The position numbers were made by a program, and so were the translations under genes. Under the pieces are notes generated by a model. That model did no database searches and was not told the DNA's origin. It worked only from the letters and a program-made list of their open reading frames with translations. Below are positions 2,759 to 21,033 of a stretch of 64,000 nucleotides of DNA, piece by piece. The stretch's first letter is position 1, and every line of letters starts with the position of its first letter. The DNA lies in contig JAQTXG010000001.1 in the NCBI GenBank assembly GCA_028688895.1, positions 62,001-126,000 of the forward strand. Reading direction: 5' to 3'. This stretch comes from Candidatus Altimarinota bacterium (GTDB lineage Bacteria; Patescibacteriota; Gracilibacteria; BD1-5; UBA6164).

Positions 2759-3088
2759 TTAATCCAATTTCGTCTCCTTGAAAGCATTAAGTGCTGCTTT
2801 AAGTTTTACAATAATTAATGCTGTCTTATTCTCTACAGCATCTACTTTTTCACTAGCCATTTCAGCAACTAAATTTACGAAATCAGCACTGAAATCCACA
2901 GTTGTATTACCAATTCCTTTTAGTAAAATCTCCAATAAATCCCTTAATTTAATATCGATATACTGAGTTTTATCTGAACTTATTCCTTTAAATATGATTC
3001 TAACACCATCTTTAATAGCAATCAGTTCATCTACATTTTGAAAATTACCATTTAATGAAAATAGTATTTTTTCATCTTGTTCTGCCAT
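2759..3088 (-). CDS. Unknown 109-residue acidic protein, TGA-free class
   Basis: No family recognised. The protein is mixed alpha/beta, without signal peptide or membrane helix. It starts MAEQDEKILFSLNG and ends in a helical stretch rich in Ala, Val and Lys. A strong GGAG ribosome-binding site precedes the ATG, glycine is always GGN, and the stop is TAA. It is divergent from the phosphatase-kinase operon, and two palindromic operators lie in the shared 221-base gap, so co-regulation is likely. The minus strand has a TTGACT / TATATT promoter near 3149-3122. Confidence 0.75.
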   Translation of the reverse strand: MAEQDEKILFSLNGNFQNVDELIAIKDGVRIIFKGISSDKTQYIDIKLRDLLEILLKGIGNTTVDFSADFVNLVAEMASEKVDAVENKTALIIVKLKAALNAFKETKLD

Positions 3089-3200
3089 ATCCTTTCTCCA
3101 AAGTGTTTTAAAGACTCATAAAATATAAAACTATTTACATAAAAGTCAATACTAAAAATATTGGCTTATATAAAATCAAAAATAAGAAAATGTTAAAAAA

Positions 3201-3274
3201 TAGTGTAGTATTAACACTAAAATCTTTTGACAAAGAAAAAAATAAAAATACAATTATAGTGTTCAAAAGACACT
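3201..3274 (+). promoter_or_regulatory. Promoter with two AGTGT-N7-ACACT operators
   Basis: The -35 box is TTGACA (3227-3232) and the -10 box TACAAT (3249-3254) with a 16-base spacer. Perfect palindromes flank it: TAGTGT-N7-ACACTA at 3201-3219 just upstream, and AGTGT-N7-ACACT at 3258-3274 over the likely start site. The string ATCTTTTGACAAA recurs before pncA (about 14084) and nadE (about 16499), and both promoters carry the same palindrome. The placement suggests repression by a dimeric regulator. The NrtR-like protein at 33556-34209 is the obvious candidate, by inference. Confidence 0.75.
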
Positions 3275-3309
3275 GTTCTTTAACATAAACCGAACTTAGG
3301 AGAATAGAA

Positions 3310-4182
3310 ATGAAAGATACATTTGAAATAGCGTTTGGCTCTATAGTTGGAACCGATCACACGAAAGTATTTAAAAATAATCAGGATGCATACGCATATA
3401 AGCAAGGAAGCAATTATATTGTAGCTTGCGTAGCAGACGGTTGTAGTGCAGGTATTTTTAGCGAATTTGGAGCTAGGTTTGCAGTCAATTTTTTTGTGAA
3501 TTCTGTGAGTAATATCTTGCAGTCACTTTCAGATAAAGAACTTGATTGTCTAGCCGAAAAAGAATATGTTTCATTTCCATTTTTCGATAAAATACGCCTA
3601 GATATGCTATCTTCGATTCGAGTTTTGGCTAATTCTATGGGCAATGATTTGAACAAAATCATCAGTGATTTTTTTTTATTTACATTAGTTGCAGTACTTA
3701 TCACTCCTTTTGGAACAGATATTGTATCCATAGGTGACGGTTACGCAGCCATAAACGGTGAAGAGTTTGATATAGATATTCCTGTCAGTCAGGACTCTAG
3801 TCTAATGAACGCTCCACCATATATGGTTTACAACCTAGTCCACTCAAAACTATATGAAAAAGAAAACAAATCACTAAATTTTCGCTTAATAAAAGGTGTA
3901 AAAACAACACAACTAGATTCACTATTAATTGCTACTGACGGAGTATCAAAATGGAGTGAAATACAAGACTTAAACATTCCAGCAAAGTCAGAATTAGTAG
4001 GTCCATTATCTCAGTTTTGGACTGATGATAAGTATTTTTCAAACCAAGATTTGCTCAGGCGAAAATTATTTTTGATGAACAATCCAAAAATAAGACTAGA
4101 CCGAGAAAACGATTGTATACAAAAATACTCAGGTTTACTAAACGACGACACCACAATTATAGCAATTCGCAGGAAAACATAG
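3310..4182 (+). CDS. PP2C-family protein phosphatase (YegK/TerY-P triad type)
   Basis: 290 residues with the metal-binding motifs of PP2C phosphatases in order: NQDAYA (D26), VADGCSAG (D43, G44), IGDGYA (D143), ATDGVSKW (D210) and NDDTT (D279, D280). It should remove phosphate from Ser/Thr residues using two Mn/Mg ions. It is the first gene of a run with a kinase, a nicotinamidase-like fusion and a VWA protein. That matches the phosphatase of the YegK-YegI-YegL / TerY-P group, which probably reverses the kinase. The start is fixed by TAGGAG 9 bases upstream. Glycine is always GGN and the stop is TAG, unlike host-dialect neighbours. Two palindromic operators precede it. Confidence 0.9.
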   Translation: MKDTFEIAFGSIVGTDHTKVFKNNQDAYAYKQGSNYIVACVADGCSAGIFSEFGARFAVNFFVNSVSNILQSLSDKELDCLAEKEYVSFPFFDKIRLDMLSSIRVLANSMGNDLNKIISDFFLFTLVAVLITPFGTDIVSIGDGYAAINGEEFDIDIPVSQDSSLMNAPPYMVYNLVHSKLYEKENKSLNFRLIKGVKTTQLDSLLIATDGVSKWSEIQDLNIPAKSELVGPLSQFWTDDKYFSNQDLLRRKLFLMNNPKIRLDRENDCIQKYSGLLNDDTTIIAIRRKT

Positions 4183-4256
4183 AAAACTCTATCCTGAATA
4201 CTTTCTATTATTTAAGGAAGGGACTACAGAATTTTTTTAAGCCTCCCTCTAGAGGT

Positions 4257-4290
4257 ATTTATGCCCGAAGGGAGGTATCCTGTGGACAAG
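4257..4290 (+). repeat. 34-bp repeat, inverted copy at 8253-8286
   Basis: ATTTATGCCCG, one variable base, then AGGGAGGTATCCTGTGGAC plus AAG. The reverse complement recurs at 8253-8286 with one mismatch, so the pair brackets the kinase and nicotinamidase-like genes. Upstream, GCCTCCCTC can fold back on GGGAGG to form a hairpin in the phosphatase-kinase spacer. The downstream leader (4285-4320) is also similar to the leader of the VWA gene. Confidence 0.7.
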
Positions 4291-4320
4291 TGAGAGTTTA
4301 AAAAATATGGAGAAAAAATC

Positions 4321-6189
4321 ATGTTAGTAAAAATAAACAACATTGCTGTAAATATTGATCCTACAAAATCAATAGGCAAGGGAGGTGAAGCTGATATTTA
4401 CAATTTGGGTTCCGGTAAAGCATTGAAATTATTCAAAACCGTTGACCATCCAGATGTAAAAGGTTCACCATTAGAAGAACTATCGGCAAAAAATCGTTTG
4501 AAAGAACATCAAAGCAAATTACCTAGTTTTCCTACAGGATTACCTGCAAATGTCATTACTCCAATTGATTTAGCATATGACAAAACAGGGAAAAAGATAG
4601 TAGGATATACTATGAATCTGGTTGATAATGCTTCTGTTTTGTATTCATTCTCACAAAGAATGTTTAGACAAGGCATTTCAAACAACGAGATTACTCAGAT
4701 TTTCCTGAAACTTTTTTCTACTGTAAATACATTGCATAAAAATGGTATTGTAATAGGTGATTTCAATGATTTGAATGTCCTTGTAAATGGACAAAATCCA
4801 TATATTATCGATTCTGACAGTTTCCAATTTGGACATTTTTTGGCCCGTAGTTTCACTCAAGATTTTACTGATCCATTAAATGCAAATCCAAATTCTACTG
4901 CAGTTGAACTTATAAAACCATTCAATCATTTTTCTGATTGGTATGCTTTTGCAGTACTATTATTTCAAAGTTATTTATTCGTAAAACCTTATGGAGGTAG
5001 TTACAAACCAAAAGACCAAAACAATCGAGTCTCACATACAAAAAGGCCGTTAGAAAGAATCACTGTTTTTGATGATGAAGTGAAATATCCAGTCAAACAA
5101 GCTTTGCATTATTCTCATTTGAGTCCTGATTTATTGGATTATTTTTACCAGATTTTCAAATCTGATTTGAGAGAAGTATTTGATAAAAAAATGCTTGAAA
5201 ACATAGAATGGAAAACATGTAAAAAATGCGGTTTGGAGCATGCAACATATGCGTGTCCTAGCTGTGTAGGAATAGTTCCAGGACATGTTGTACAGACTAT
5301 TGTGATAAAAGGCAACTTGAAAGCAAGCAAAGTATTTAATACAAAAGGATTTATAGTTTATTCAAAAGTCGAATCAGGTGTTTTGAAATATATCTATCAC
5401 TCAAATGGTGCATATTATCGTGAAAACGGTGAAAAAATCATTGATGGAGAAATAGACAATCAGATCAGATTTAGGATAAATTCTAGAAATACTTTGTTGT
5501 CCAAAAAAGGTATTTTAGTCACTATCAAAAATACTCAAATCATCGATAAGGTAGCAGTTGGTAGCTGTGGAATATTACCAGTATTTGATTCAAACTCTTT
5601 AAACAGATTTTGGATTTCGGCTGAAAATATCTACAAACAAGGTACATTAGGACCGGAACCAATTGGTAAAATACTTTCAAAACAAACTGTGTTTTGGGTA
5701 GGTGAAAAACTAGGATTTGGATTTTATAGAGCAGGTGATTTAAATGTTGGTTTTATCTTTGATACTTCCAAACACGCAATTCTCGACTCCATAGATTTCC
5801 CAATAATCCCAGGAAAACTCCTAGATGTGACTTGTTATATATCTGATAAACTGATTTGGTTTTTCGCAAGCTTCATGCAAAACGGAAACAAAACTAACAG
5901 ATGCATAGTCTATGACAAACAAGGCAAAATACAAGCGACAAAAGAAGAAATATCTAGCGTCGACTCTTGGCTTACTTCCATTCGTGGTAAAACAGTTTAC
6001 GGAGATTTTTTGATGTCTGCAACAGACAGTGGTATAGTCCAACTTAAAGTTGAAAACTCACAAATCATCGTAAAAAATTCCTACCCAGATACTGCCTCCT
6101 ACGTAGATGATGAAAGTATTATTCATCTCTCAAATGAGGGAATTTATGTAGTAGACTACAAAGAAATAACATTGTTGCAATTACATTAA
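4321..6189 (+). CDS. Ser/Thr kinase with zinc ribbon and beta-rich tail (YegI-like)
   Basis: 622 residues. The kinase fold covers about 1-290: glycine loop GKGGEA (19-24), lysine K36, catalytic GDFNDLN (D147, N152) and DSDSFQ (D163) in place of DFG, as in the YegI/TerY-P kinase family. A four-cysteine zinc ribbon follows (C300-x2-C303, C312-x2-C315). The remaining 300 residues are beta-rich and propeller-like, with no family recognised. It probably phosphorylates partners in the operon, opposed by the PP2C upstream. GGAGAAAAAATC precedes the ATG. There is no in-frame TGA in 622 codons, and the stop is TAA. The target is unknown. Confidence 0.88.
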   Translation: MLVKINNIAVNIDPTKSIGKGGEADIYNLGSGKALKLFKTVDHPDVKGSPLEELSAKNRLKEHQSKLPSFPTGLPANVITPIDLAYDKTGKKIVGYTMNLVDNASVLYSFSQRMFRQGISNNEITQIFLKLFSTVNTLHKNGIVIGDFNDLNVLVNGQNPYIIDSDSFQFGHFLARSFTQDFTDPLNANPNSTAVELIKPFNHFSDWYAFAVLLFQSYLFVKPYGGSYKPKDQNNRVSHTKRPLERITVFDDEVKYPVKQALHYSHLSPDLLDYFYQIFKSDLREVFDKKMLENIEWKTCKKCGLEHATYACPSCVGIVPGHVVQTIVIKGNLKASKVFNTKGFIVYSKVESGVLKYIYHSNGAYYRENGEKIIDGEIDNQIRFRINSRNTLLSKKGILVTIKNTQIIDKVAVGSCGILPVFDSNSLNRFWISAENIYKQGTLGPEPIGKILSKQTVFWVGEKLGFGFYRAGDLNVGFIFDTSKHAILDSIDFPIIPGKLLDVTCYISDKLIWFFASFMQNGNKTNRCIVYDKQGKIQATKEEISSVDSWLTSIRGKTVYGDFLMSATDSGIVQLKVENSQIIVKNSYPDTASYVDDESIIHLSNEGIYVVDYKEITLLQLH

Positions 6190-6229
6190 TCAACAGTATT
6201 AAATAATTCTTATTAAAAAGATGGGGGTT

Positions 6230-6334
6230 TTAGGGGGGAGGACTGAGATGAGCCGCATGTAGAAACATCAAAACATGCCAGTTGGAACTTCTCCCCCCTA
6301 ACAGTTTTGCCATACTTTTGCTGTCAAAAGTATG
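6230..6334. repeat. Stacked inverted repeats in the kinase to nicotinamidase-like spacer
   Basis: TTAGGGGGGAG (6230-6240) pairs perfectly with CTCCCCCCTAA (6291-6301), enclosing a smaller CATGT/ACATG stem. Next comes CATACTTTTG-CTGT-CAAAAGTATG (6311-6334), a perfect 10-bp hairpin without a T run. The rest of the 259-base spacer is an A/C-rich, T-poor leader ending in AGGTGA before the next ATG. It could be an mRNA processing or attenuation site or a short mobile repeat. Confidence 0.6.
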
Positions 6335-6448
6335 AAAGAACCATACCACACTACAAACTAAAAATCACAACAACCCAAAAATCTTAACACAAACTTATTA
6401 ACAAAAACAACTTTAAATTAATCAAAAATCCAAAACAGGTGAAATAAA

Positions 6449-8179
6449 ATGAAACCAAACAACTACAAAAACGCATTCTTAAATTCACAAAAACAAAGCG
6501 TATCTGGCTTGTGTGGGCGGATTATCCGAGGCGTACAGGACAAAGACTTCCTGTCACTGACCGATGATCCAAACCGCAAACTGGTTATGCTGATGGGACC
6601 TGACGGACTACAATCCATCTTGGGTAAAAACGGCCTTGAATCATTGGTACAAATCGGCTACGAAGCTGACTACATCAATCACAAAGTCAATGTTGAAAAC
6701 AACAAATTCAAACTGATTGTCTTCAAAGAAGGTGCTCAAGCCAGGATTGCCACTTGGGACAATGTCATAGACATTGCGTCAAGTGTATACCCAAGCATTG
6801 CACTGAAATTGCAAGCTCAAAAAAATGGTTTGAAACAATCAAGTTTTTCAGAAATCGAGTCTCAATCAGGCTTCAAGTTCAGTGAAGTAGACAAAGTCGG
6901 TGTTTCTGATTCACGATTTATGAATTTGGAACGTTTAGAAAAATCTATTGGAACTCTATCTGAAGTCAGAGCTTTTTTGTACTTTAGTGTTTATCTGAAA
7001 GAATTATTTTCTGGAGACGGCTATACTTATAGCTTCGACGGCAAAAAAGGACTTCAAGAATACATAGTTCCAAATATGTCAATCTCAGATCTGGACTCAT
7101 CAATAGTCATCGATCTGGAAATCAAATTACCACAACAAAACAAGGTGAATATCATGTCAAAAAAACAATTGAACATCCCAGCAATTTACGATGAATCAAA
7201 AGTTGATCAAATCCGTAGAATTGCATACAACGATATTGCTCAAAAAGCCAGACAGTGGGCAAAAGATAATGCTATCAAACCAGCAGCCAGCGACAAAGTA
7301 AAAGTTGCTGTGTTGGGTATTGATATGCAAAACACATTTTGCACTCCTGGTGGTGAACTTTTTGTACAAGGCGCAGTAGAAGACTCCAAACGGTTCGTAG
7401 AGTTTATCTACCGCAACATGAACTACATCTCTAAACTGGCAATGACATTGGACACACATACTGCCGAACAAATCTTTCATGAAGAATTTTTTGTGAACGA
7501 TGACGGCGAACACCCAGCTCCAATGACTATGATCTCTATCAAAGACATCGAAGATGGTATCTGGAAAGTGTGTCCCAGTGTAGCTGCAAACATCGCAAAT
7601 GGCAATTACATCGCTGTACAAAACCATGTTATGCACTATGTCAAAGAACTGAAATCAAAAGGTCGTTATGACTTGTTGATTTGGCCATATCACGCTATTT
7701 TGGGTGGTGTTGGTCACGCTTTGGTTCCAGCTATCGAAGAAGCTTGCTTTTTCTATGACCGTGCTAGAAACAACCAAACCAAGTTTGAAGTAAAAGGTGG
7801 AAATCCTTTGACTGAAAACTATTCAGTGTTTGGTGCTGAAGTCTTGACCACAAGCGGTGGCAAACCTATTGCACAAAAAAACACCAGTTTTATCAAATTG
7901 CTTTTGGACTATGATTATGTAGTCATCGGTGGTCAAGCAAAAAGTCACTGTGTGGCTTGGACTATCGAAGATTTACTGACTGAAATCCAAGCAAGAGACC
8001 CTAAACTGGCAAAAAAAGTTTACTTATTGGAGGATTGTACATCTCCAGTTGTAGTTCCAGGTATAGTTGATTATACCGATGAAGCAAACGAAGCATTCAA
8101 AAAATTTGAAAAAGCAGGTATGCACATCGTAAAATCTACTGATGCAATCGAAAACTGGCCAGGAATTATCCTGGACTAA
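6449..8179 (+). CDS. Unknown domain fused to nicotinamidase/isochorismatase-like hydrolase
   Basis: 576 residues. The N-terminal part (1 to about 228) has no family I recognise, but its paralogue is the free-standing protein at 12584-13234. The C-terminal part (about 280-576) is an isochorismatase-fold cysteine hydrolase: D292 in GIDMQNTFC, a TLDTH metal-site motif, YHAILGG, and catalytic C501 in QAKSHCVAWTIEDL. It probably cleaves nicotinamide or a related amide, but is larger and divergent from pncA at 14354. AGGTGA sets the start. A second GGTG and ATG at about 7143-7156 lies at the domain junction, as if two genes fused. Glycine is always GGN and the stop is TAA. It sits between the kinase and VWA genes. 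Confidence 0.82.
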   Translation: MKPNNYKNAFLNSQKQSVSGLCGRIIRGVQDKDFLSLTDDPNRKLVMLMGPDGLQSILGKNGLESLVQIGYEADYINHKVNVENNKFKLIVFKEGAQARIATWDNVIDIASSVYPSIALKLQAQKNGLKQSSFSEIESQSGFKFSEVDKVGVSDSRFMNLERLEKSIGTLSEVRAFLYFSVYLKELFSGDGYTYSFDGKKGLQEYIVPNMSISDLDSSIVIDLEIKLPQQNKVNIMSKKQLNIPAIYDESKVDQIRRIAYNDIAQKARQWAKDNAIKPAASDKVKVAVLGIDMQNTFCTPGGELFVQGAVEDSKRFVEFIYRNMNYISKLAMTLDTHTAEQIFHEEFFVNDDGEHPAPMTMISIKDIEDGIWKVCPSVAANIANGNYIAVQNHVMHYVKELKSKGRYDLLIWPYHAILGGVGHALVPAIEEACFFYDRARNNQTKFEVKGGNPLTENYSVFGAEVLTTSGGKPIAQKNTSFIKLLLDYDYVVIGGQAKSHCVAWTIEDLLTEIQARDPKLAKKVYLLEDCTSPVVVPGIVDYTDEANEAFKKFEKAGMHIVKSTDAIENWPGIILD

Positions 8180-8252
8180 AACTTTATTTTTTTGCATTAC
8201 TATAAGTGTAAAAAATACGTTAAATAATCCACCCTTGTAAAATTACCAATCC

Positions 8253-8400
8253 TTGTCCACAGGATACCTCCCTACGGGCATAAATTCCTTCCATTAAGTC
8301 TAATGAAGGAGGCTACAATCAATTTAATGTAGCCTCTTTCCAGCTTTAGCGGGATAGAATTTATCCGAAGGGACAAGAGAGAGGTTAAAAAATCAATTAG
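8253..8400. repeat. Inverted copy of the 34-bp repeat plus further palindromes
   Basis: 8253-8286 is the reverse complement of 4257-4290 with one mismatch. It is followed by AAGGAGGCTACA / TGTAGCCTCTTT pairing (about 8305-8340) and GAATTTATCCGAAGGGACAAG (split as GAATTTATCC and GAAGGGACAAG). The last is a partial direct copy that leads into the VWA gene's ribosome-binding site. A weak operator-like AGTGT-N7-ACGTT lies upstream near 8205. Confidence 0.65.
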
Positions 8401-8410
8401 GAGAAATATC

Positions 8411-9208
8411 ATGTCAAACACAACAGTAAATGATTTGTTTGGTTCTGCAGCGGATGAAGGTTTGTTATCACAAGACTCTCAATCAGCGATTGAATTTGCC
8501 GACATCGGCGAAGAAATCAATGCAGCACTAGGCATAAACGCAGACGATTTTGGTTCCAGTGAGGTAGTTCTAGTAACTATGCTCATCGATGATTCAGGAT
8601 CGATTCAGGGTAGTAACAACGTAGATGTAGTTATAAATGGCCACAACTTGGTCATCGAATCTCTACAATCCACAAAACAAGCACAAAGCGACTCTATTTT
8701 GGCACATACACGTTACCTAAATGGCAAAGTATTATTTCCTTATCAGTCTATAAATCAGGCTGTTAAAATGGACCATAGTAACTACAACCATTTCGGAGGT
8801 ACACCTCTATATGACCAATCTGCAGTTGTTTTGGCTACTGTCATTGCCAAATGTCAGGAATTTTCTGACAACGGTATTGCTTGTCGAAGTGTTACATTGA
8901 TTGTAACCGATGGCGCTGATTGTCACTCTAACAAGTTTAGAACAGCAAAAAGCATTTCGCCATTGGTTCGCGACTTGTTGAGACAAGAAAACCATATCGT
9001 TGCTGCAATGGGTATTGACGACGGTGGTTATACCGATTTCAATTCAGTATTCACAGAAATGGGGATTCCAGATTCATGGATTCTAACCCCAGCAAACACT
9101 GACTCAGAAATCCGTGCCGCTTTCAATATGTTTTCCCAATCTGCAACCCAGGCTTCTCAAAGCGCTCAAGCATTTAGCCAAGCTGCTATGGGAGGTTTTG
9201 GAAATTAA
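8411..9208 (+). CDS. Von Willebrand factor A protein (YegL/TerY-like)
   Basis: 265 residues with a complete MIDAS metal site: DDSGSI near residue 60, GGTPLYD near 129, and VTDGADCHS near 164. This is the pattern of TerY/YegL-type cytosolic VWA proteins. The last 30 residues are low complexity, rich in Ser, Gln and Ala. In TerY-P triads the VWA protein works with the PP2C phosphatase and kinase, probably as their target or scaffold. Here those two are upstream in the same run. AGGAG 8 bases before the ATG fixes the start. Glycine is always GGN and the stop is TAA. Confidence 0.85.
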   Translation: MSNTTVNDLFGSAADEGLLSQDSQSAIEFADIGEEINAALGINADDFGSSEVVLVTMLIDDSGSIQGSNNVDVVINGHNLVIESLQSTKQAQSDSILAHTRYLNGKVLFPYQSINQAVKMDHSNYNHFGGTPLYDQSAVVLATVIAKCQEFSDNGIACRSVTLIVTDGADCHSNKFRTAKSISPLVRDLLRQENHIVAAMGIDDGGYTDFNSVFTEMGIPDSWILTPANTDSEIRAAFNMFSQSATQASQSAQAFSQAAMGGFGN

Positions 9209-9502
9209 GCCCTAACCAATCAGGGCAACAGACCACCCACTACCCCCCTCCTTACTAAGGAGGGGAAACTAAAACAAAAAACAAAACAAAAAACAAAACA
9301 AAATAAAACAAAAACAAATTTCAACAAACAAAAAAAGGAGAAATAAAAACCCTCGTAAGCTATATGCTTACGGGGGGATTTGTCGTAGGAAAATACTATT
9401 TAAAAAATCAGTAAAATATAAAAAACAAAATTTTTTCTAGAAGTGAATTTTGCAAAGTTCCATATAATATTTAATCACGGCTTTTTCCTAGTCTATAAAA
9501 TT
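9209..9502. other. Non-coding tail of the triad operon, with an orphan ribosome-binding site
   Basis: It starts with a CCCTAACC/CAGGG hairpin and a CCCCTCCTTACTAAGGAGGGG palindrome (split CCCCTCC and GGAGGGG). Next is a long A/C-rich leader like the one before 6449, ending in AAAAAGGAGAAATAAAA at about 9334. No ORF follows; instead there is a CGTAAGC/GCTTACG hairpin. A downstream gene may have been lost. The 15-mer TTTTTTCTAGAAGTG, seen also at 21578 and 51856, is at 9431-9445. Confidence 0.5.
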
Positions 9503-11665
9503 TTACAAATTTTCATATCTCAAATTTCATGTTTCTTGATTACCATCTCAGTATTTTTCTATTGCAGGATCTATGAAATCCTTGTTGTGAATTTTTGTAG
9601 GCGATACTGAACAAGTTCTTTCCAATAACCATTCGTAAGATACATTTCAATCATTATCAAGTCTTGCATTTTCTGATGATTTTGCTCATATATCAACCAA
9701 TATTTCATACGCTGCTTTTGCTATATATTCAGCTGTTCTATACTCTGGTGCCACTATTTGAGAAGTTTGTTTATCTACTCTATCAAAAAATCAATGTTGC
9801 AATTTATGACGAACATATGCTAATGGACTAAATCAAGTATTTGTTGTATCTATTATATCAGTATGTCATAAAGCATCTGTAAAAGGTATTTCATAATGCA
9901 CAGTTTGTCACTCTAAATCTTGAATTCATTGACTTATTACATCTTTTAAAAATGGTTTTCAGTCTTCATGAGTTATTTCAAAAAGTATAATTTTTTTCAA
10001 TTTTTTCATTTCTTTCTCTTCTATTGAGTCAGACTTTTTTATTTTTATTCTTTCTAAGTATTCACTTGAAAATAGGGCAGATTCTTCCATAATATCTTCT
10101 TTGTCTATACCTGTTATTTTTGCGTATTTTTCATCAGCTTCAGACATTCTGTATGAATGATCTATATCATGCATGAAAAATTCTTCAGGAGACTGATCAA
10201 ACTCATCTACATAGATAAATTCGTCAGATAAACCAATAAATCTAATAGAGCTACATCTCACTTTCATCAAATCAGTAGCTCATAAATGCTCATATGTAGG
10301 TATAGCTATTTCATCAGGTATCTTATTCAAAAAATCATTTAAGTGATATTCATATTTTTTCATATGAAATGAAGCATATTTAATCATTTCTTTATTCATT
10401 TTTCATTCAGTATTTGCAACAGCATAATAACCGATTTTTTCTCTAGCAATCAAATCAACAAAAGAAATATATTTCAAAATAGCTTTTACAGTAGGTAAAT
10501 ATGGACAGAAATTTCTATTTTTGAAGCTCACATGTTCCAGAGAATTATAAACTTTTTCTCTTAGTCAGAATAATATATTATTTTTTGAACACAATTCATT
10601 TATCTCTTCACTTTTCAATTTGTCTTTCATTCTTTCAAGTATAGGGAAAAATTCTGGAAAAGATGTATTTAAATCATTATTATTTTCTTTAAAACGTTGT
10701 TTTAATGACTTCTGATATTCTAGAGGATTGTCTATTATATTTCTGATCCAAGTTTTGTGAGAAAAGTTTCTTTCCTTTTCTATTGAGGTTTTACCAGATA
10801 AAAATGCTACTATATTTCTATGATGACTAAAAGTAAGTCATCCATTTTCATTTTCCAAATCCATGATTTCAGATTTTTTTATCCATATGTTTCAATTATC
10901 TGGTATATTTCATTCTAGCTCCATGCTGTATCAAATAGTATCAACCAAATGACGAGGATCACTAGGTTTTGTTATTTGATTTAGTTTATCTTTATATATA
11001 TACCCAGAACTATCTTCTGCATACAATTTTATTTTTGTACTTTTGTCCTTGTTTGCTACAAAATAATAAAATTTATCATTTTCTCATTGAGCTTTTCAAT
11101 AAATCAAATCTTTGTCTTGGATAATTTTTTCTCCTGCTATTCTCAGTGCAGCAAATATATGAGTTTCAAGTCATAGTTCATTATCTTCATCATCATCTCT
11201 GATTATACCACCTGGCAAAGCATTTCATTCAGGAAAATATTTTCTTTCATTACAAAGTATATGTTTAACTCAATTTTCATCAGTCTTTGATATTACTAAA
11301 TCGACCGTAGGCTTTGAAGTCAGATAATTTAATACATAATTTCTAGATGCTTCCTTCAATTTTTCATTATGTATCAATCTATCTATTAAATCCTTTTTAT
11401 CCTGGTTATTTGAAAAATATTCTATTAATCAATTATATATCTTGGTTTGTAGATTTTTATTTCTAATTGCTCTATGATACCAATAAATCATATAATACAA
11501 ACTAGTAAGAAATACTTCTCTTCATATATTGCTATTTATAAAATCATATTCATTTCATACTAGTTGATTTATAGCATCATTTACATCTTGTTCTACTTTT
11601 TCTATACTATTTAGTACTTTTTGAGTATCCTTTATATCTATATTTTCTATACTATTTTCTATCAT
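9503..11665 (-). CDS. Large unknown protein, possibly with a Nudix-like segment
   Basis: 720 residues in code 25, with many TGA glycines, starting at the only ATG after upstream stops and ending in TAA. No family is recognised with confidence. About 180 residues in, NALPGGIIRDDDED then GLETHIFAALRIAGE loosely recalls a Nudix box but lacks the REXXEE core. A later part has FFMHDIDHSYRM, a His/Asp-rich stretch that could bind metal. There is no signal peptide or membrane helix. It is the only host-dialect gene between the triad operon and the TGA-free group at 11879-13985. It has no clear terminator. Confidence 0.7.
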
Positions 11666-11878
11666 TTTTTTTATTAAAATATCTAAAGTATTCAGTATTT
11701 TCTAAAGAATATTATTTTATAACCTAGAAATATACTTAATTATAATAATAATATAATAAATAAAATATATAAAAAGTCAATAAAATACTTGATTAATAAA
11801 ATTTATCTATATAATCTAACAGAAGGTAAAAAAACCTTCATTAAACTATCGTCATTATTTAAAAAAAGGGGAAAACTG

Positions 11879-12463: not shown

Positions 12464-12482
12464 AGTCAGATATCTAAAATAA

Positions 12483-12515
12483 AAACCCATCTGGAAACAG
12501 AAGGGTTTAATTTTT
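12483..12515 (+). terminator. Terminator with GAAA tetraloop
   Basis: AAACCC-A-TCTG-GAAA-CAGA-A-GGGTTT followed by AATTTTT. It separates the membrane-protein gene from the promoter of the next gene. Confidence 0.85.
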
Positions 12516-12520
12516 ACATA

Positions 12521-12554
12521 TTGACATTTTATAAAATTGTGTATTATATACAAA
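12521..12554 (+). promoter_or_regulatory. Promoter with a degenerate AGTGT-N7-ACACT operator
   Basis: TTGACA (12521-12526) with TATTAT (12542-12547) or TATATA (12545-12550). Over the -10 lies TGTGT-N7-ACAAA (12538-12554), the same spacing as the perfect operators but with three mismatches. It precedes the paralogue of the N-terminal domain of the 6449 protein, which strengthens the regulon idea, but the site is weak on its own. Confidence 0.5.
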
Positions 12555-12583
12555 CTTTGTATAAAATCGTTGAGGTAAAGCTC

Positions 12584-13234
12584 ATGAATATAGATGAATA
12601 TGTAACTTGTTTTAAAAATAAACAAGAAATCACAGATTTGAATGCTTACAATGCTAGAATATTGAGAGGAAAAAAAGATAGTGATTTCCAGACTTTGTCA
12701 GATGATAAAAATAGGAAATTGGTTTTTGTAATGGATGATGAAGGATTGCAAAAAATAGTAGGAAACTCTACATATGAAATGCTCATAAAAACAGGATATC
12801 ATCCAAATTATATAGAACAACTTTTTGCTGAAAAAACAATTTTCAAACTGATTATTTTTCCAAAAATAAACCCAAAAATGTTAGCTACATGGGACAATGT
12901 ATTAGATATGGTAGTGATGCTATATCCAGATACAATAAATCAAGTAACTGACTACATAGAACAGTTAAAAGAAACCAGATTTGAAGAAATAGAAAAATTA
13001 TCAGGACACAGATTTGCAGATATAAGCAAGAATTATTTTAAAAATGCAGCTAGTTTAAAAGGCTTAGCAGAGTTTAGATTTTTTCTGTACCACTCAATTT
13101 ATCTCAGAGAATATTACCAAGGAGATGGATTTACAAAGAATTACAAAGGAGAAAAAATATTTAGAGAATATGTGGTTTTTAACACACAAATAAGATATTT
13201 GAGTGATTATAGAATCATAGATTTAGAGATATGA
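12584..13234 (+). CDS. Free-standing copy of the 6449-protein N-terminal domain; ends in UGA
   Basis: 216 residues aligned along their whole length with residues 1-228 of the 6449-8179 protein. Shared features are RILRGKKDSDFQTL vs RIIRGVQDKDFLSL, DDKNRKLVFVM vs DDPNRKLVMLM, ATWDNVLDM vs ATWDNVIDI, and the end IDLEI. The function is unknown. GAGG lies 9 bases before the chosen ATG; an upstream ATG-less frame is excluded because the promoter starts at 12521. The stop is TGA, 1 base before a terminator hairpin. If read as glycine it adds 23 residues, to TAG at 13303, through the hairpin. This fits descent from a standard-code genome. Confidence 0.78.
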   Translation: MNIDEYVTCFKNKQEITDLNAYNARILRGKKDSDFQTLSDDKNRKLVFVMDDEGLQKIVGNSTYEMLIKTGYHPNYIEQLFAEKTIFKLIIFPKINPKMLATWDNVLDMVVMLYPDTINQVTDYIEQLKETRFEEIEKLSGHRFADISKNYFKNAASLKGLAEFRFFLYHSIYLREYYQGDGFTKNYKGEKIFREYVVFNTQIRYLSDYRIIDLEI

Positions 13235-13235
13235 A

Positions 13236-13268
13236 AAGAGCCATATGCAATAAGCATATGGCTCTTTT
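13236..13268. terminator. Shared bidirectional terminator
   Basis: AAAAGAGCCATATGC-AATAA-GCATATGGCTCTTTT (stem of about 15 bp) between convergent genes 12584-13234 and 13284-13985. Both genes end in TGA just outside it. Confidence 0.9.
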
Positions 13269-13283
13269 ACAATCACAAATTTT

Positions 13284-14353: not shown

Positions 14354-15115
14354 ATGAGAAATAAAGAAAAGGAAGCAGTCATAATAGTTGACTATCAAAA
14401 AGGTTTTGCAGATAAACAAGTGAACGAATTATATGTAAATGGTTGAGAAACATTGGCTCCAATTATAAATGAAGTCACTAGAGAAGTTAAATCAAAATGA
14501 TGAATCATACTAGCATCAAAAGATATGCACAGATTATGAAATGTATCATTTGCACAAAATTTCAAATGAAAAGTAGCACTTACAGATGCATTAAAAGCTT
14601 GAAAAACACCAGGACCTGAGAATTTTATTACATTAAGTGAAGTAGAACACTGGACAGAAGAAAGCAATTGATTGGAAGATTCAGCATGATTTACAGTATC
14701 AGAATTGAAAGCATATTTAAGTACTCAAAAAAACTATACTATGGCTTTATGGCCAGCACACTGTGTAGTAAATACTCCAGGATCAGAATACCAAGATGGA
14801 CTTGATAAAAGCTTGATAGATATAGAAATCATCAAATGATACCAAAACAATACACATCCATATAGTGCATATCCATGAATAGAACTTTGAACTAAGAGGG
14901 AAGTAATCGATGTACTTGATGAAGAATGAATCATAAAAGTAAAAGTTACATGACTAGCCGCTGATTGGTGCGCTTGAGATACTGCTATAGATATAGCTAA
15001 AGTATGAAGATTTGTAGTAGAATTTATAAAAAAAGCATCAAAAGCAGTTACTCCAGCAGACGAGGTAGAATACTTGATGAATATGAGAAATTCTTGAGTA
15101 ATAATCGTTGAATAA
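14354..15115 (+). CDS. pncA: Nicotinamidase
   Basis: 253 residues in code 25. It hydrolyses nicotinamide to nicotinate, the first step of the salvage route completed by the next genes. IVDYQKGF carries catalytic D13. KDMH follows near the metal site, WPAHCV lies at about 138-143, and the catalytic cysteine is C206 in GLAADWCAGDTAID. Numerous TGA codons fall on expected glycines (LAADWCAG, HPYSAYPG). There is no Shine-Dalgarno sequence. It is first in the run pncA-pncB, 30 bases apart, under the operator-bearing promoter. It belongs to the same superfamily as the C-terminal half of the 6449 protein but is clearly a separate, standard-length enzyme. Confidence 0.92.
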
Positions 15116-15145
15116 TAACAAATTTTAAATATTAATAAAAAAACT

Positions 15146-16495
15146 ATGAAGTCAAATCTATTGTATAGACCATCAGATGTATTTTCTGTAGCCAGAGATG
15201 AAGTTGAAGTAGATAATTTACTAAACAATGATATCTATAAATTCTTAATGTTAGATTTTATACTTGCACAAGATGAGTACAAAGATGTAAATGTTAGATG
15301 GAAAATGAAAATCCGTAATGATAATATACGTATTGCAGATGTAATTCCTTTGGAAGCATTAAAAGAACAATTTGATGCAACAGCTCAAATAAAGTGAGTA
15401 AGTCAAGCCGATATATCTTTTCTGAGATGAATGCAAAGACCTGATGGGAAACAACTTTTTAGAGAAGAAACTCTAAAATTTCTACAAGAATTCAGATTAC
15501 CAGAGTATAGTATTACAAAAGACAATGAATGAGGTTATGATTTAGAATTTGTTTGACCATGGAAAGCATCACTTATGTGGGAAGTATTATGATTAAAAAT
15601 AGTAAACACACTATATCTATATCACTATGGAAAAAAAGAAAAAATCTCAAATGTAGAATTTGATGAAATAATTAATCAGACAATAAGGAGATTATATGAT
15701 GATGTAAAAATTTATAAAAATCATCCAGGTATTACTCTTTCTGAGTTTGGAACAAGAAGAAGTGCTAGTACAGATATACAAAGAATGGTAAATGAAATAT
15801 TAAATGAAAAATTACCATGACAATATATGGGGACAAGTAATGTAATGATAGCAAGAGAAATGTGAAATGCTAACCCAAAAGGTACAAATGCACATGAACT
15901 AAGAATGATACCAACAGCATTAGAAGATGATCCACAAAGAATTATTGATGTTATGTATGATGTAGATAGAAAATGGTGAAAGCATTTCCCAGGACTAAGT
16001 ATATTATTACCAGATACATATGGAACCAGTTTCTATTTCAAAAATTGTCCCGAAGATATAGCTATGACTCATAATGGTAATAGATTTGATTCAAAAGACC
16101 CAAATATTTGAATACCAGAATATGAAAGATTTCTACAAAAATTTTGACTTGATCCAAAAACTCATTTGAGAATTCCAAGTGATTGACTTAATTCAAAAAT
16201 TGTTGTTGATATTTATGAAAGAAATAAACATTATTGACCAATTACATTCTGAAAGTGAACGCATTTAACAAACAATACAAAATGAACATGGCCTAGAGAA
16301 GTTGAACCACATGGACCATTTGGATCTATGTCAGTAGTAGTAAAACCATACGAAGTACAAAGACCTGATTGATCATGGGTAAAATGTGTAAAATTATCAG
16401 ACAACCCAGATAAAGGTATGTGAGAAGAAAGATTACCATTATTTAAAAGAACATTTTGAACAGAATGATTCCAAAGACAAGATGTTTTAGTTTAA
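15146..16495 (+). CDS. pncB: Nicotinate phosphoribosyltransferase
   Basis: 449 residues. It joins nicotinate and PRPP to give nicotinate mononucleotide. The family signature EFGTRRSAS is present, followed by GTSNVMIAREM, a catalytic-histidine context in NPKGTNAHELRM, and the PRPP-site stretch GLNSKIVVDIYE then ITFGKGTHLTN. Length fits the family. Many glycines are TGA. The stop TAA at 16493-16495 lies 7 bases before the -35 box of nadE, so the nadE promoter begins right at the gene end. Confidence 0.92.
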
Positions 16496-16659: not shown

Positions 16660-18486
16660 ATGAACACAAATGCTATAAATCTATGACAAGTACAAGTAGA
16701 AGCTGGTAGACCAGATTTAAACATGGAAAAAGTTATAGAACAAATTAAAAACACTCCTAGATGATGAATACTGATTTTACCTGAAATGGTAATTCCAGGT
16801 TATATGATCTGAGATGATTGGTTGTATGAATCATATATAAAACACTGTAGAGACTTCAATGATGAGATTATTAGACTATCTGGAGAATATTGAATTACAA
16901 TAGTATGGTGAAATATAGCATTCGATGAATCAAAGAAAAACGAAGACTGAAGTATTAGGAAGTACAATGGAGCATACATAGCAAGTAACTGAAAACTATT
17001 AAAAACTCAATACAAAACTCTACTACCAAACTATAGAATGTTTGATGATAAGAGATATTTTCATAGCTTAAAAGATTTGGTTGTTGAAGAAAACTTAGAT
17101 AACAAAGATGAAAGTATCAGAGAAAAATTAGAAGAAGAATACAAACCAGTAGAAGTATTTATAGACTGAGTAAAAACTAAAGTATCTCTACTTATCTGTG
17201 AAGATATATGGAATATAAACGATGATTATGCAGTTGATCCAGTTGAAATGACAAAGAAATATTCACCTGATTTGATAGCAGTAGTATCAGCTTCACCATT
17301 TGGTTTAGAAAAAGCTAAATTTAGAGACAAATTACTTAAAATAGTTAGTGAAGATACTACTATTGCTTATGTAAATCCTATCTGAATTCAAAACAATGGT
17401 AAAAATGTATTTAATTTTGATTGAGGTTCTAGTATTTACAGAGATTGAGAATTTATCAGGTGAGTTAAAAATTATACTGAAAATAAAAATGACTTAGAAA
17501 CTACTATTACTGAATTGAAACACCTAGAAGAACCAGAACAAATTTTTGATGCTCTTATATATGTTATAAAAGAATTCTGGAAACAAAACTGATGGGAAAA
17601 AGCTATGATATGATTGAGTTGATGAATCGATTCTTGACTAGTTTCTACTTTGCTAACTATTGCATTGTGAAAAGAAAACATCACTGCTATAAATATGCCT
17701 AGTAAGTTTAACTGAGAAACAACTAAATCATTAGCTCATACTCTAGCAAATAATTTATGAATAGACTACAAAATATCTCCAATGGATAGAATGGTAGAAG
17801 CACAAGTACAAGATTATTTAGATTTAGTATGAGAAATGCCTAGTAGTTTTGAGATGGAAAATATTTATGCAAGAGCTAGAGGTGGTAAATTATCAAATCT
17901 AGTAGCAAAATTTTGACCATATACCAACAACTGAAACAAAGACGAAGTACTTACATGATATGCAACACTTTACGGTGATGTTAATGGAGTACTAGCAATT
18001 ATTTGAGACTTACATAAGACTCAAGTTTGGGATTTATGTAGATGGATAAATGATAATGTAGAAAAAGTAATGCCAAGTTCAAAATTAGAAGAAATTATTC
18101 CAAATGAAATGATAGAAATGAAACCAGCAGCAGAATTATCAGATGAACAAAACGTAGATAACGGTTGAGGAGATCCTTTTGATTACAATTTCTTATCAGC
18201 GATTGAAATGGCATATTATAACAAAAAACAAACTATTTTTGATATAATAAGTAAAATATCAGACGACACATTAGAAAATTATTTATGATTAGAAAAATGA
18301 TACTTGGATAAATTATTTGATACAAAAGAAAAAAGTATAGAAGAAGCAAAAAGGATATGGAGACTAAAAACCATTAGTTATTTCAAAAGAGTTCAATGTC
18401 CACCAGTAATAACTATTTCTAGATCTAGTCCATGATTTGATCACAGAGAATCTCAAAATAAACCATATTTTTGGGGAGAAAACTAA
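16660..18486 (+). CDS. nadE: Glutamine-dependent NAD+ synthetase
   Basis: 608 residues. The N-terminal nitrilase-fold glutaminase has LPEMVIPGY (Glu), KTLLPNYRMFDD (Lys) and C180 in LLICEDIW. The C-terminal synthetase has the ATP-binding S320-GGID-S325 loop, in which both glycines are TGA, then GDVNGVLAIIGDLHKTQVW and CPPVITISRSSPGFDHRE. It amidates nicotinate adenine dinucleotide to NAD+ with ammonia from glutamine. Length is typical of the two-domain type. There is no Shine-Dalgarno sequence. The stop TAA precedes a hairpin terminator shared with the convergent gene. Confidence 0.95.
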
Positions 18487-18944: not shown

Positions 18945-19853
18945 ATGAAAACAATTATTACACATCCAAATTTTGATTATCTATGAGAACAAATAGTTAG
19001 AGATAACAGAGGTAAAATATCAAAAGCACAAGTAGATTTTGAAGCTTTTGAAGATGGTTGGCCAAATATATTCGTAGAAAAAGTAAAAGAATTAATAGAA
19101 CATAATGATGTCACATATATCTGAGATTTTTCCAAACCAAAAGACTTGTTTATAAATTATGCACTTATAAACTGAATACTTGATTATTATGCTGACAAAG
19201 TAAGAGTTATTATGCCTTATTTTCCAGTATGAACTATGGAGAGAATAGATGAAAAATGACAAGTAGCTACAGCTAAATACTTCGCTGATATCATGAGCAA
19301 TTTACCAAGTGGTAGGATGTGAAAAACGAGTATACATGTTTTTGATATACATGCACTACAAGAGAGATTTTATTTTGATAGCAAAAATGTAAATGCTGAG
19401 ATGCACACAGCTATGAATTTACTAGACGAAATAGTTAAGTGAAAAATAATTGTATTTCCAGATGACTGAGCAAAAAAGAGATTTTGAAAAGACTTCCCGG
19501 AAAACGAAACTCTATCATTTTCAAAAATCAGAAAAGGTGATTCTAGAGTATTAACTTTGAACTGATGAGATGTAGATTGAAAAGATGTTTTATTAATAGA
19601 TGACCTAATACAAACTTGAAATACTATTATAGAAGCGACAAAAATACTGAGAGAAAAGTGAGCAAAATCTGTCACAGCATTTGCTACTCATGGTGTATTT
19701 CCAAATTGATCAGTAAAAAAACTATCCAAAGAAGTAGACAAATTGATAGTATCAGACTCTATACCAAAAAATATTTCTAGAGCAGAAAAAATAAAAAATA
19801 TGGAAATAATAAGTCTAAAATCAGATATAGAAAAACTTATATTTAATTGATAA
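18945..19853 (+). CDS. prs: Ribose-phosphate pyrophosphokinase family protein
   Basis: 302 residues. The PRPP-binding loop LLIDDLIQTGNTIIEA is near residue 220, with MPYFPVGTMER and VFDIHALQERFYF as the ATP- and ribose-5-phosphate-side motifs. It makes PRPP, the co-substrate of pncB, which explains its place among NAD genes. It is divergent from E. coli Prs but has the right order of motifs. Many TGA glycines and no Shine-Dalgarno sequence. nadD starts 4 bases after its TAA, so prs-nadD-nudix form one operon. Confidence 0.85.
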
Positions 19854-19857: not shown

Positions 19858-20457
19858 ATGGAAAACATAGCGATATACTGATGAAGTTTCAATCCACCTA
19901 CTTTATGACATATACAAGTAGTTAAGTGAGTTTTAGAACACACAGATATAAAAAAAATAATTGTAGCACCATCATGAGATAGACTAGACAAATCTCATAA
20001 TATAGAACACAATAATAGAAAAAAATTGATAGAAATATTTATAAAAGTACTAAAAGAATCATGAGTAAATGTAGATTTGGATTTATATTTCTTTGAATGA
20101 AAAAACAATGGAATAACTACTACATTGCAAGAAGAAAAATATTTCAAACAAAAACTATGACTAGAACCTACTTTTATCTATTGATCAGATGTAGTAACAC
20201 ATATGCACAATTGGGTTTGAAACGATAATAAGTACATAGAAAAAAAATTAAAAAAGATTTTTATAAATAGACCAGGTTATGAATTCAAACCACAAAATTA
20301 TTCACTAGATAATTACATATTATTAGACATTCCTGAACTTATCCAAGTTTCTAGTAGTGTAGCCAGAGAAATGATAAAAAATAAACAAAGTGTAGCAGAT
20401 ATATTGAATCCAGAAATAGTCAAAGAGATAATAAATAACAATTTATATACTAAATAA
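19858..20457 (+). CDS. nadD: Nicotinate-nucleotide adenylyltransferase
   Basis: 199 residues. The opening IYGGSFNPPTLGH, with TGA for each glycine, is the nucleotidyltransferase GSFNP-x4-H signature. VSSSVAREMIKN near residue 164 is the ISSS-x2-R ATP motif. It adds AMP to nicotinate mononucleotide to give deamido-NAD, the substrate of nadE. The gene is 4 bases after prs and 6 before the Nudix gene. The motif YGSDVVTHMHNW fits the substrate site of NadD-type enzymes. Confidence 0.9.
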
Positions 20458-20463: not shown

Positions 20464-21033
20464 ATGAAAGTATTAGAAACTCAAATAGTACATCCAGGTA
20501 GATTTGTAGACAAAGTAATTGTTTCAGTAGAAAATGATGATTGAACTACAACTCCTTGGGAGTGAGTATACAGAAAGGGAACTTGACTAGTAGCTGGAGC
20601 ACTAGTAGAAAACATACAAGAGTGATTTTTTTTACTTGTAGAACAGTTTAGACCGCACTTCAATTCTAGAGTTTTAGAAATAGTAGCTTGATTGGTAGAT
20701 AAATGAAACACGCCACTTCAAACAATAAATCTAGAATTATTAGAAGAAGCATGATATACAGCAAAAAATATCACTCTAATACTAGAATGACCAAAATCAG
20801 CATGAATGACAAATGAATACGAATATTATTATCATGTAGAAATAACAGGAAAATGATGAACACAAGATTTATGAAAAGATGAAAAAACACTAGAAATAGT
20901 AAAAGTAGAAAATAAATTGAGCGAACTACTGAAATTAACAAATCAAAAACAATCACAATGAATACTCGTTTCACCAGAAATCTGGAATATCATATGAAAA
21001 ATGACAGCAATGTGAGCAGAATTCAAAAAATAA
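20464..21033 (+). CDS. Nudix hydrolase, ADP-ribose pyrophosphatase-like
   Basis: 189 residues. The Nudix box is near 80-100: AGLVDKGNT then LELLEEAGY. It keeps the EXXEEXG core but has Leu for the usual Arg. Before it, FLLVEQFRPHFNSRVLEIVAG matches the NudF/ADP-ribose pyrophosphatase group. It probably cleaves ADP-ribose or a related nucleotide sugar, recycling breakdown products of NAD. It is last in the prs-nadD operon, and a long hairpin follows. The changed Arg makes activity less certain. Confidence 0.82.

What the first reader, a model, noticed from the sequence alone, without database searches (positions are those of the whole stretch)
3310..9208. YegK-YegI-YegL / TerY-P-like triad with an embedded nicotinamidase-like enzyme
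PP2C, a kinase with a four-Cys zinc ribbon, and a VWA protein in a run match the published TerY-P triad (YegK-YegI-YegL in E. coli). Between kinase and VWA lies a 576-residue protein ending in an isochorismatase/nicotinamidase fold with D292 and C501. I do not know of such a member in described triads. The combination suggests phosphosignalling coupled to NAD breakdown products, perhaps a stress or phage response that senses NAD loss.
Basis: partly seen in the sequence, partly recalled or inferred. Interest (0 to 1): 0.85.

Follow-up and report, generated by a model that had tools for sequence, protein, structure and literature searches.

The report
Kinase switch wired to NAD recycling
Four neighbouring genes - a protein kinase, the phosphatase that would undo its work, a scaffold-type protein and an enzyme of the kind that recycles vitamin B3 - travel together in giant bacterial viruses, cyanobacteria and tiny bacteria, often beside genes that rebuild the coenzyme NAD, which suggests a switch that controls NAD supply, perhaps during virus-host conflict.

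Summary
In detail: PP2C, YegI-like kinase with a four-Cys ribbon, a 576-aa protein and a VWA protein lie in a run at the stated coordinates. The C-terminal domain has the full nicotinamidase site (D292/K449/C501; metal D335/H337/H415), kept in 177 of 177 homologues aligned.

The linkage is conserved. Of 65 distinct viral homologues fetched by hydrolase similarity alone, 54 have PP2C, kinase and VWA beside them, in one of two orders (43 and 10); 25 of 65 also show an NAD-synthesis gene within about 9 kb. Complete sets (module plus PncB, NadD, NadE, Prs) stand together in two other Patescibacteria; in the window they lie 5 kb downstream (14354-21033).

The unknown N-terminal domain is sporadic. 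All seven loci found carry parts of the module; it is fused to the hydrolase in four and separate in three. Its AlphaFold model (pLDDT 91) matches, weakly, mostly ADP-ribosyltransferase-fold NAD+ enzymes (Z up to 3.1), without sequence support.

The cassette contains no TGA codon, whereas neighbours spell most glycines TGA: it was acquired from a standard-code donor. Best reading: a TerY-P-like phospho-switch controlling deamidating NAD+ salvage. Sensing of NAD loss is unshown.

The parts
3227..3254 (+). sigma-70-like promoter site (TTGACA-N16-TACAAT) upstream of the PP2C gene
   Evidence: consensus scan, 11 of 12 matches; the region as a whole is not much above shuffles (74 v 63.9), so weak
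3310..4182 (+). PP2C Ser/Thr phosphatase, 290 aa, metal Asp motifs NQD/VADG/ATDG/NDDT present
   Evidence: Pfam PP2C_2 E 3.6e-18; motifs; family HMM hits E. coli PphC E 1.2e-13
4321..6189 (+). YegI-like protein kinase, 622 aa, with C-terminal region after the zinc ribbon
   Evidence: family HMM hits E. coli YegI E 5.1e-30; catalytic GDFNDLN and DSDSFQ
5218..5265 (+). four-Cys zinc-ribbon motif of the kinase (residues 300-315)
   Evidence: CKKC-x8-CPSC
6449..7150 (+). N-terminal domain of unknown family (about 225 aa), fused to the hydrolase; possible ADP-ribosyltransferase-like fold
   Evidence: no Pfam or PHROG hit; AF2 model pLDDT 90.8; structural matches Z 2.4-3.1, 7 of 8 ART-fold enzymes; no profile support
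7166..8179 (+). nicotinamidase-type cysteine hydrolase domain; D292, K449, C501, metal D335/H337/H415
   Evidence: A2 profile against PDB; residues in 177 of 177
8411..9208 (+). TerY/YegL-like VWA protein, 265 aa, MIDAS DDSGS60 / GGT129 / TDG166
   Evidence: family HMM hits YegL E 4.7e-09; motifs; phrog_7371 E 9.3e-06, unknown function
9350..9376 (+). terminator-like hairpin after the VWA gene
   Evidence: consensus scan
4253..4290 (.). left arm of a 38-nt inverted repeat in spacers around kinase and hydrolase genes
   Evidence: 95% complementary to 8252-8289
8252..8289 (.). right arm of the 38-nt inverted repeat
12584..13234 (+). stand-alone copy of the N-terminal domain (40% identical); homology ends at a TGA, which the genome would read as Gly and run on to 13303
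14354..15115 (+). canonical nicotinamidase-type isochorismatase-family gene of the NAD+ salvage operon (code 25)
   Evidence: Pfam Isochorismatase E 8.1e-10
15146..16495 (+). NAPRTase (PncB)
16660..18486 (+). glutamine-dependent NAD synthetase (NadE)
18945..19853 (+). PRPP synthetase-like (Prs)
19858..20457 (+). nucleotidyltransferase, probably NadD
   Evidence: Pfam CTP_transf_like E 1.7e-09
20464..21033 (+). Nudix protein
   Evidence: Pfam NUDIX E 6e-10

Best explanation
The locus is a horizontally acquired module in which a TerY-P-like phospho-switch (kinase, PP2C, VWA) controls the nicotinamide-to-nicotinate step, and so the flow, of deamidating NAD+ salvage (nicotinamide -> nicotinate by the module's nicotinamidase, -> NaMN by PncB, -> NaAD by NadD, -> NAD+ by NadE, PRPP from Prs). 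Shown: the genes, intact active-site residues, conserved linkage, co-occurrence with NAD-synthesis genes. Inferred: that the kinase phosphorylates and PP2C dephosphorylates a client held by the VWA protein, most likely the hydrolase, its N-terminal domain or a salvage enzyme; that the kinase's ribbon and C-terminal region take the input. Inferred with less confidence: the N-terminal domain has an ADP-ribosyltransferase-like fold and binds or cleaves NAD+, passing nicotinamide to the fused nicotinamidase, so that NAD+ use and recycling sit in one protein. In huge phages the module would secure NAD+ for replication or restore it after NAD+-depleting defence; in Patescibacteria it would serve scavenging from a host.
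For: Linkage: 54 of 65 distinct viral hydrolases (84 loci dereplicated at 90%) have all three partners in the fetched locus; 43 in order HYD-VWA-PP2C-KIN and 10 in PP2C-KIN-HYD-VWA, the same cyclic order. PP2C occurs once in each of 35 of 38 viral records searched whole; 32 of those 35 lie inside the ~19-kb locus, 2.87 expected, P 4e-33. All 6 f13 genomes of the window's class found by the hydrolase carry PP2C and kinase, 5 of 6 VWA; the sixth locus begins at a contig end. NAD link: PncB, NadE, NadD or NadM in 25 of 65 viral groups at E <= 1e-5, two or more in 12. Among genome-contig loci, Nudix 11 of 15 and ADP-ribosylglycohydrolase 9 of 15 where the triad is present, 0 of 61 and 1 of 61 where no partner is. 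Complete clusters: L194 (PP2C-kinase-fusion-VWA-Nudix-NadD-PncB-Prs-NadE) and L103; L113 (PP2C, N-domain, NadE, PncB, kinase, HYD, VWA). Active site 177 of 177. Fusion recurs in L110, L194, L195. Fold hint.
Against: The hydrolase occurs with none of the three partners within the fetched flank in 61 of 80 genome-contig loci, so it does not need them. 40 of 65 viral groups show no NAD-synthesis gene in the fetched flank. The window and 5 of 6 f13 loci also have a second isochorismatase-family gene nearby, so a plain salvage role would be redundant. The window's NAD operon is native code-25 DNA and 5 kb away, not part of the acquired block. The N-domain is absent from all 46 further genomes or records searched and from 376 of 379 in the phylum. 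Its ART-like matches are weak (Z <= 3.1; Foldseek E > 1 for the better model) and hhalign against small RES and KptA profiles gave about 1%. No phosphorylation or enzyme activity can be tested here.
Confidence: 0.6

Rival explanations
1. Conflict system that consumes NAD+: the triad switches on the N-domain as an NADase or ADP-ribosyltransferase, and the nicotinamidase removes the product nicotinamide, making depletion or modification irreversible. The module is then defence, or phage-against-phage exclusion, not salvage.
For: TerY-P-like modules are reported as antiphage systems (PMC11090510 passages); weak ART-fold match of the N-domain; ADP-ribosylglycohydrolase in 9 of 15 triad loci of genome contigs; horizontal transfer.
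Against: Most triad-hydrolase loci lack the N-domain; neighbours are NAD-building genes; many carriers are viral records, 19 of 39 with a terminase match.
Confidence: 0.17
2. The hydrolase acts on another amide, or is a pseudo-substrate sensor, and the triad regulates something unrelated such as ADP-ribose removal.
For: A second isochorismatase-family gene lies nearby in the window and in 5 of 6 f13 loci; no Pfam Isochorismatase hit for the window protein.
Against: All six catalytic and metal positions kept in 177 of 177; the PDB profile hits are mainly nicotinamidases; PncB and NadE next to it in several loci.
Confidence: 0.13
3. Passenger linkage: NAD genes and the triad share islands and phage accessory regions without working together.
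For: 61 of 80 genome contigs hydrolases stand alone.
Against: Fixed gene order and common strand in 53 of 65 viral groups, and one PP2C per record placed at the hydrolase in 32 of 35; fusion seen in four loci.
Confidence: 0.1

Closest known systems
TerY-P triad (Anantharaman et al. 2012, known to me through passages of PMC11090510 and PMC4978471)
   Same: TerY-like VWA, PP2C, and kinase fused to a C-terminal zinc ribbon, in one run
   Different: Constant fourth gene, a nicotinamidase; no Ter, McrBC or restriction genes among the recurring neighbours; NAD-synthesis or ADP-ribose genes instead; most distant phage kinases lack the ribbon motif (60 of 62)
E. coli YegK(PphC)-YegI-YegL
   Same: Family HMMs hit PphC E 1.2e-13, YegI E 5.1e-30, YegL E 4.7e-09; PphC dephosphorylates YegI according to PMC13232886 (passage)
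   Different: No hydrolase or NAD genes in the fetched K-12 stretches; YegI similarity is confined to the kinase domain
Phage NAD+ salvage and reconstitution: NadV-NadM/NadR (PMC9503650 section 3.6), NARP1 Adps-Namat (PMC12774641 passages), jumbo-phage NAD synthesis (Li et al. 2024, PMC11662467, title only, not held)
   Same: Phages carry genes that rebuild NAD+
   Different: Deamidating route starting with a nicotinamidase, and a kinase-phosphatase-VWA set. Li et al. could overlap on the enzymes; I could not read it
ADP-ribosylglycohydrolase-centred host systems with Nudix or WYL regulators and vWA (PMC9503650 section 3.8)
   Same: ADP-ribosylglycohydrolase, Nudix and vWA together
   Different: No nicotinamidase, PP2C or kinase in the section I read

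Membership tests
TerY-P triad | VWA protein of TerY/YegL type with MIDAS | tested here: met
   DDSGS60, GGT129, TDG166; YegL hit E 4.7e-09
TerY-P triad | PP2C phosphatase adjacent | tested here: met
   metal motifs
TerY-P triad | kinase fused at the C-terminus to a zinc ribbon | tested here: met
   Window: residues 300-315. In the family: motif in all 17 genome contigs, all 11 close viral (some duplicate contigs), 10 of 11 Patescibacteria, 2 of 62 distant viral kinases
TerY-P triad | phosphotransfer among the members | not testable with these tools
   needs proteins
TerY-P triad | association with Ter or DNA-processing genes | tested here: inconclusive
   none among the commonest neighbour clusters, but only clusters recurring in several loci were looked at; not a strict defining feature
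Nicotinamidase (PncA type) | catalytic Asp-Lys-Cys | tested here: met
   D292, K449, C501 in 177 of 177; role assignment recalled
Nicotinamidase (PncA type) | metal site Asp-x-His ... His | tested here: met
   D335, H337, H415 in 177 of 177; columns align with yeast nicotinamidase 2h0r
Nicotinamidase (PncA type) | hydrolysis of nicotinamide | not testable with these tools
   needs assay
ADP-ribosyltransferase fold (N-terminal domain) | ART fold | tested here: inconclusive
   7 of 8 entries with Z >= 2 are ART-fold NAD+ enzymes, but Z <= 3.1; Foldseek E > 1
ADP-ribosyltransferase fold (N-terminal domain) | profile similarity to an ART family | tested here: inconclusive
   Pfam: no ART family; hhalign against two thin profiles (RES from one usable row, KptA from a few) about 1%
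ADP-ribosyltransferase fold (N-terminal domain) | NAD+-binding Arg and catalytic Glu | tested here: inconclusive
   R24, R27 and E204 invariant in 6 of 6; the resemblance to ART strand motifs is recalled, not tested
NARP1 | Adps and Namat pair | not tested
   no search for Adps was made

The most novel reading that the evidence does not exclude
A closed NAD+ cycle under protein-kinase control: the fused protein is a new ADP-ribosyltransferase-fold enzyme joined to the nicotinamidase that takes its product, switched by a dedicated kinase-phosphatase-VWA set and fed back into NAD+ by PncB-NadD-NadE. Huge phages and Patescibacteria exchange it as one unit, and cyanobacteria carry a form with ADP-ribosylglycohydrolases instead of the N-domain. 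It would be a signalling system that uses NAD+ turnover itself as its currency.
Probability: 0.3. Interest if true: 0.92.

Novelty: new variant of a known kind. Interest (0 to 1): 0.78.

Why it matters
TerY-P-type triads have been known for years without an agreed client or signal. A form in which the triad is regularly joined to one metabolic enzyme offers a concrete, assayable output: nicotinamidase activity and NAD+ level. It would also add a regulated, deamidating branch to the known ways in which phages rebuild NAD+ against NAD+-depleting immunity. The possible ART-nicotinamidase fusion, if real, would be a new enzyme architecture.

Tried and rejected
Considered and set aside: (a) assembly or frame artefact - rejected, because the fused ORF is open without frameshift and the same fusion occurs in L110, L194 and L195. 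(b) Gene order unique to this genome - rejected. (c) TGA = Trp - rejected: aligned homologues have Gly in 342 and Trp in 19 of 835 residues at TGA columns. (d) Cassette native to the genome - rejected: 0 TGA against 116 GGN codons in the four genes, whereas the six native NAD genes use TGA for 59-83% of Gly.

Led nowhere: single-sequence and two-sequence searches for the N-domain in viral contigs found no relative; the four- and six-row alignments found four loci, two of them from contigs already held. The PDB sequence profile for the N-domain gave a lysozyme repeat match with no single stretch significant. The first, four-row model gave a best PDB match to MbcT, a RES-domain toxin, at Foldseek E 0.28 and VIA Z 3.0; BFVD gave nothing. 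VIA did not list many other fold families; that excludes none. PADLOC gave only weak hits. RES and KptA searches to build comparison profiles gave few rows; my extraction of the frames failed for most of these loci, so the hhalign test rests on thin profiles. The three best plasmid regions read (Variovorax L011 and L013, Vibrio L012) have the hydrolase without PP2C or kinase; L013 has PncB, NadE and NadM-like hits beside it, and a VWA-labelled frame in L011 was not followed. In one search eight loci were left out beforehand as duplicates or fragments (L025, L022, L027, L186, L187, L191, L192, L007). NadM counts include Nudix cross-hits; the stricter counts are the ones used.
Full report
WHAT IS THERE. 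The PP2C (3310-4182) is a clear Pfam PP2C_2 member. The kinase (4321-6189) is below the Pkinase cut-off but keeps GDFNDLN and DSDSFQ and has a four-Cys ribbon at residues 300-315. The VWA protein (8411-9208) keeps the MIDAS residues. HMMs built from the relatives fetched here hit E. coli PphC (E 1.2e-13), YegI (5.1e-30, kinase domain only) and YegL (4.7e-09), so the triad comparison holds. The protein at 6449-8179 joins an N-terminal domain without Pfam or PHROG match to a nicotinamidase-type domain. Its family profile hits nicotinamidases in the PDB. D292, D335, H337, H415, K449 and C501 are unchanged in 177 of 177 aligned relatives (eight duplicate or broken loci left out, near-identical contigs included). 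A promoter-like site (3227-3254) and a terminator-like hairpin (9350-9376) would frame one transcription unit, but the promoter scan is barely above shuffles.

SURROUNDINGS. The genome (1.8 Mb, 57 contigs) reads TGA as glycine: at TGA columns of four NAD genes the homologues have Gly 342 times and Trp 19 times of 835. Neighbouring native genes spell 57-85% of glycines with TGA; the four cassette genes contain none, against 116 GGN codons. The cassette therefore came from a standard-code donor and has not been recoded. The stand-alone N-domain copy (12584-13234), the membrane protein at 11789, the DUF502-like gene at 13284-13985 and the aspartate-semialdehyde dehydrogenase-like gene at 42054 share the absence (the last two names recalled). 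Five kb downstream lies a native, complete salvage operon: an isochorismatase-family gene, NAPRTase, NAD synthetase, PRPP synthetase, a NadD-like nucleotidyltransferase and a Nudix protein (14354-21033).

CONSERVED LINKAGE. In the window's class, 8 of 288 genomes had a match to the 576-aa protein, the window's own among them; six belong to family f13 and lack the N-domain. All six carry PP2C and kinase and five of six VWA, in the window's order; the sixth locus starts at a contig end. A contig of f13 member G255 appears to be the one titled Candidatus Peribacteria (L076; same length). A search of genome contigs with the hydrolase alignment A2 confirmed 569 relatives and kept the best 80: 15 have all three partners within the fetched flank, 61 none. 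A search of viral contigs confirmed 130 and kept 80; with four records of the phage collection these are 84 loci, 65 after dereplication at 90% hydrolase identity. Of 65, 54 have all three partners, 3 two, 6 one and 2 none; the order is HYD-VWA-PP2C-KIN in 43 and PP2C-KIN-HYD-VWA in 10, one cyclic order. As a control I searched 38 of these viral records whole for PP2C: 35 have a match, exactly one each, and 32 of the 35 lie in the roughly 19-kb hydrolase locus, where 2.87 are expected (P 4e-33). The loci were fetched by hydrolase similarity alone, so this is not built in. A terminase match (phrog_2) is present in 19 of 39 records searched, including those of L107, L108 and L110; PF03237 alone matched 10 of 38. 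The rest rest on the IMG/VR classification.

THE NAD LINK. By best label at E <= 1e-5, 25 of the 65 viral groups have PncB, NadE, NadD or NadM in the fetched flank and 12 have two or more. L182 shows NadM-HYD-VWA-PP2C-KIN-PncB-NadE; L188 shows HYD-VWA-PncB-NadE-PP2C-KIN-N-domain. In Patescibacteria, L103 (titled Parcubacteria) shows PP2C-KIN-HYD-VWA followed by NadD, PncB, Prs and NadE, and L194 shows PP2C-kinase-[N-domain-hydrolase]-VWA-Nudix-NadD-PncB-Prs-NadE. In genome contigs, Nudix is near 11 of 15 triad loci and 0 of 61 partnerless ones; ADP-ribosylglycohydrolase near 9 of 15 and 1 of 61 (the ARH and one Nudix cluster were confirmed by Pfam on representatives). These loci are related cyanobacteria in large part, so the counts are not independent.

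THE N-TERMINAL DOMAIN. It was found in seven loci: the window twice; L110 (viral, fused); L113 (viral, separate, 57% identical); L188/L189 (viral, partial; the two contigs match alike and are counted once); L194 and L195 (Patescibacteria, fused). It matched 3 of 379 genomes in the phylum and 0 of 46 further carriers of the hydrolase. Every locus has parts of the module beside it; for the window's second copy that is the NAD operon and, 3.4 kb away, the cassette. With six sequences AlphaFold2 gave pLDDT 90.8, pTM 0.83. Of 205 PDB chains re-aligned by VIA, eight entries reach Z 2; seven are ART-fold NAD+ enzymes (Streptococcus NAD+ glycohydrolase 3.1, pertussis S1 in three entries 2.9-2.7, three RES toxins 2.9-2.7), the eighth is not clearly so. 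The fold assignments of these names are recalled. The Z values are low, Foldseek itself is not significant, and profile comparison gave no support, though with thin profiles. I hold an ART-like fold at roughly even odds. R24, R27 and E204 are invariant in 6 of 6 and are candidates for an NAD+ site.

HOW IT PROBABLY WORKS. The module's constant parts are a writer (kinase), an eraser (PP2C), a VWA protein and a nicotinamidase; the frequent guests build NAD+. The simplest mechanism is that phosphorylation sets the entry of nicotinamide into deamidating salvage. In Patescibacteria, which depend on hosts, this would manage scavenging; in huge phages it would keep NAD+ up during takeover or under NAD+-depleting immunity. 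A second isochorismatase-family gene beside the module in the window and in 5 of 6 f13 loci argues that the module's enzyme is specialised, perhaps to nicotinamide released by the fused N-domain. All of this paragraph is inference.

RELATION TO WHAT IS KNOWN. TerY-P is described as VWA, PP2C and kinase with zinc ribbon (PMC11090510 and PMC4978471, passages). Viral NAD+ salvage is reviewed in PMC9503650 (sections 3.6 and 3.8 read): NadV, NadM, NadR; a term search of that paper found no isochorismatase and no PP2C. The jumbo-phage survey PMC7824862 (passages) has Ter genes but no PP2C or isochorismatase hit. Ralstonia jumbo phage RsoM2USA carries NAPRTase, a NadM-like enzyme and a VWA protein near Ter-like genes (PMC8504454, passages), a related but different neighbourhood. 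A gut phage table lists a nicotinamidase (PMC10607447, passage). NARP1 is another route (PMC12774641, passages). Li et al. 2024 on NAD synthesis in gastrointestinal jumbo phages was not held (title only). My searches for the combination found no description of a nicotinamidase with the triad; the library lacks most subscription journals. A kinase tree puts the window's kinase in a supported set of 22 with viral, cyanobacterial and Patescibacterial ones; the nearest by path is viral L113, the locus with the most similar N-domain, compatible with phage-borne transfer but not proof of it.

VERDICT. Real, conserved and interesting; a new variant of the TerY-P kind, with an untested but concrete biochemical prediction.

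Noticed in passing
window 382-64000 (whole), most genes outside 2759-13985: The genome uses TGA as glycine (code 25): 57-85% of glycines in native genes checked are TGA. Standard-code gene calling would shred it.
   Followed up: yes
window 42054-43139 (-), 11789-12463 (+), 13284-13985 (-), 2759-3088 (-): Further genes without in-frame TGA and, for 42054 and 13284, higher GC than native genes: probably other recent acquisitions from standard-code organisms.
   Followed up: partly
window 12584-13303: The stand-alone N-domain copy loses its natural stop: homology ends exactly at a TGA, which the host would read as Gly and run on 22 residues.
   Followed up: partly
window 4253-4290 and 8252-8289: 38-nt inverted repeat, 95% complementary, in the spacers around the kinase and hydrolase genes; origin unknown.
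   Followed up: no
L024 (10-kb contig of a genome in the window's family): Phage-type order HYD-VWA-PP2C-KIN on a small contig; may be a phage contig binned with the genome.
   Followed up: no
L026-L040 (cyanobacteria): One or two ADP-ribosylglycohydrolase genes sit between PP2C and kinase in many of these loci.
   Followed up: partly
L013 (Variovorax megaplasmid), L012 (Vibrio 925-kb plasmid): L013: hydrolase of the same family with Nudix, PncB, NadE, NadM-like and an ARH-like hit but no triad. L012: a TerD-family gene about 4 kb beyond the hydrolase.
   Followed up: no
window 58901-62650 and 22563-28799: Very large code-25 ORFs (1249 and 2078 aa) of unknown function.
   Followed up: no
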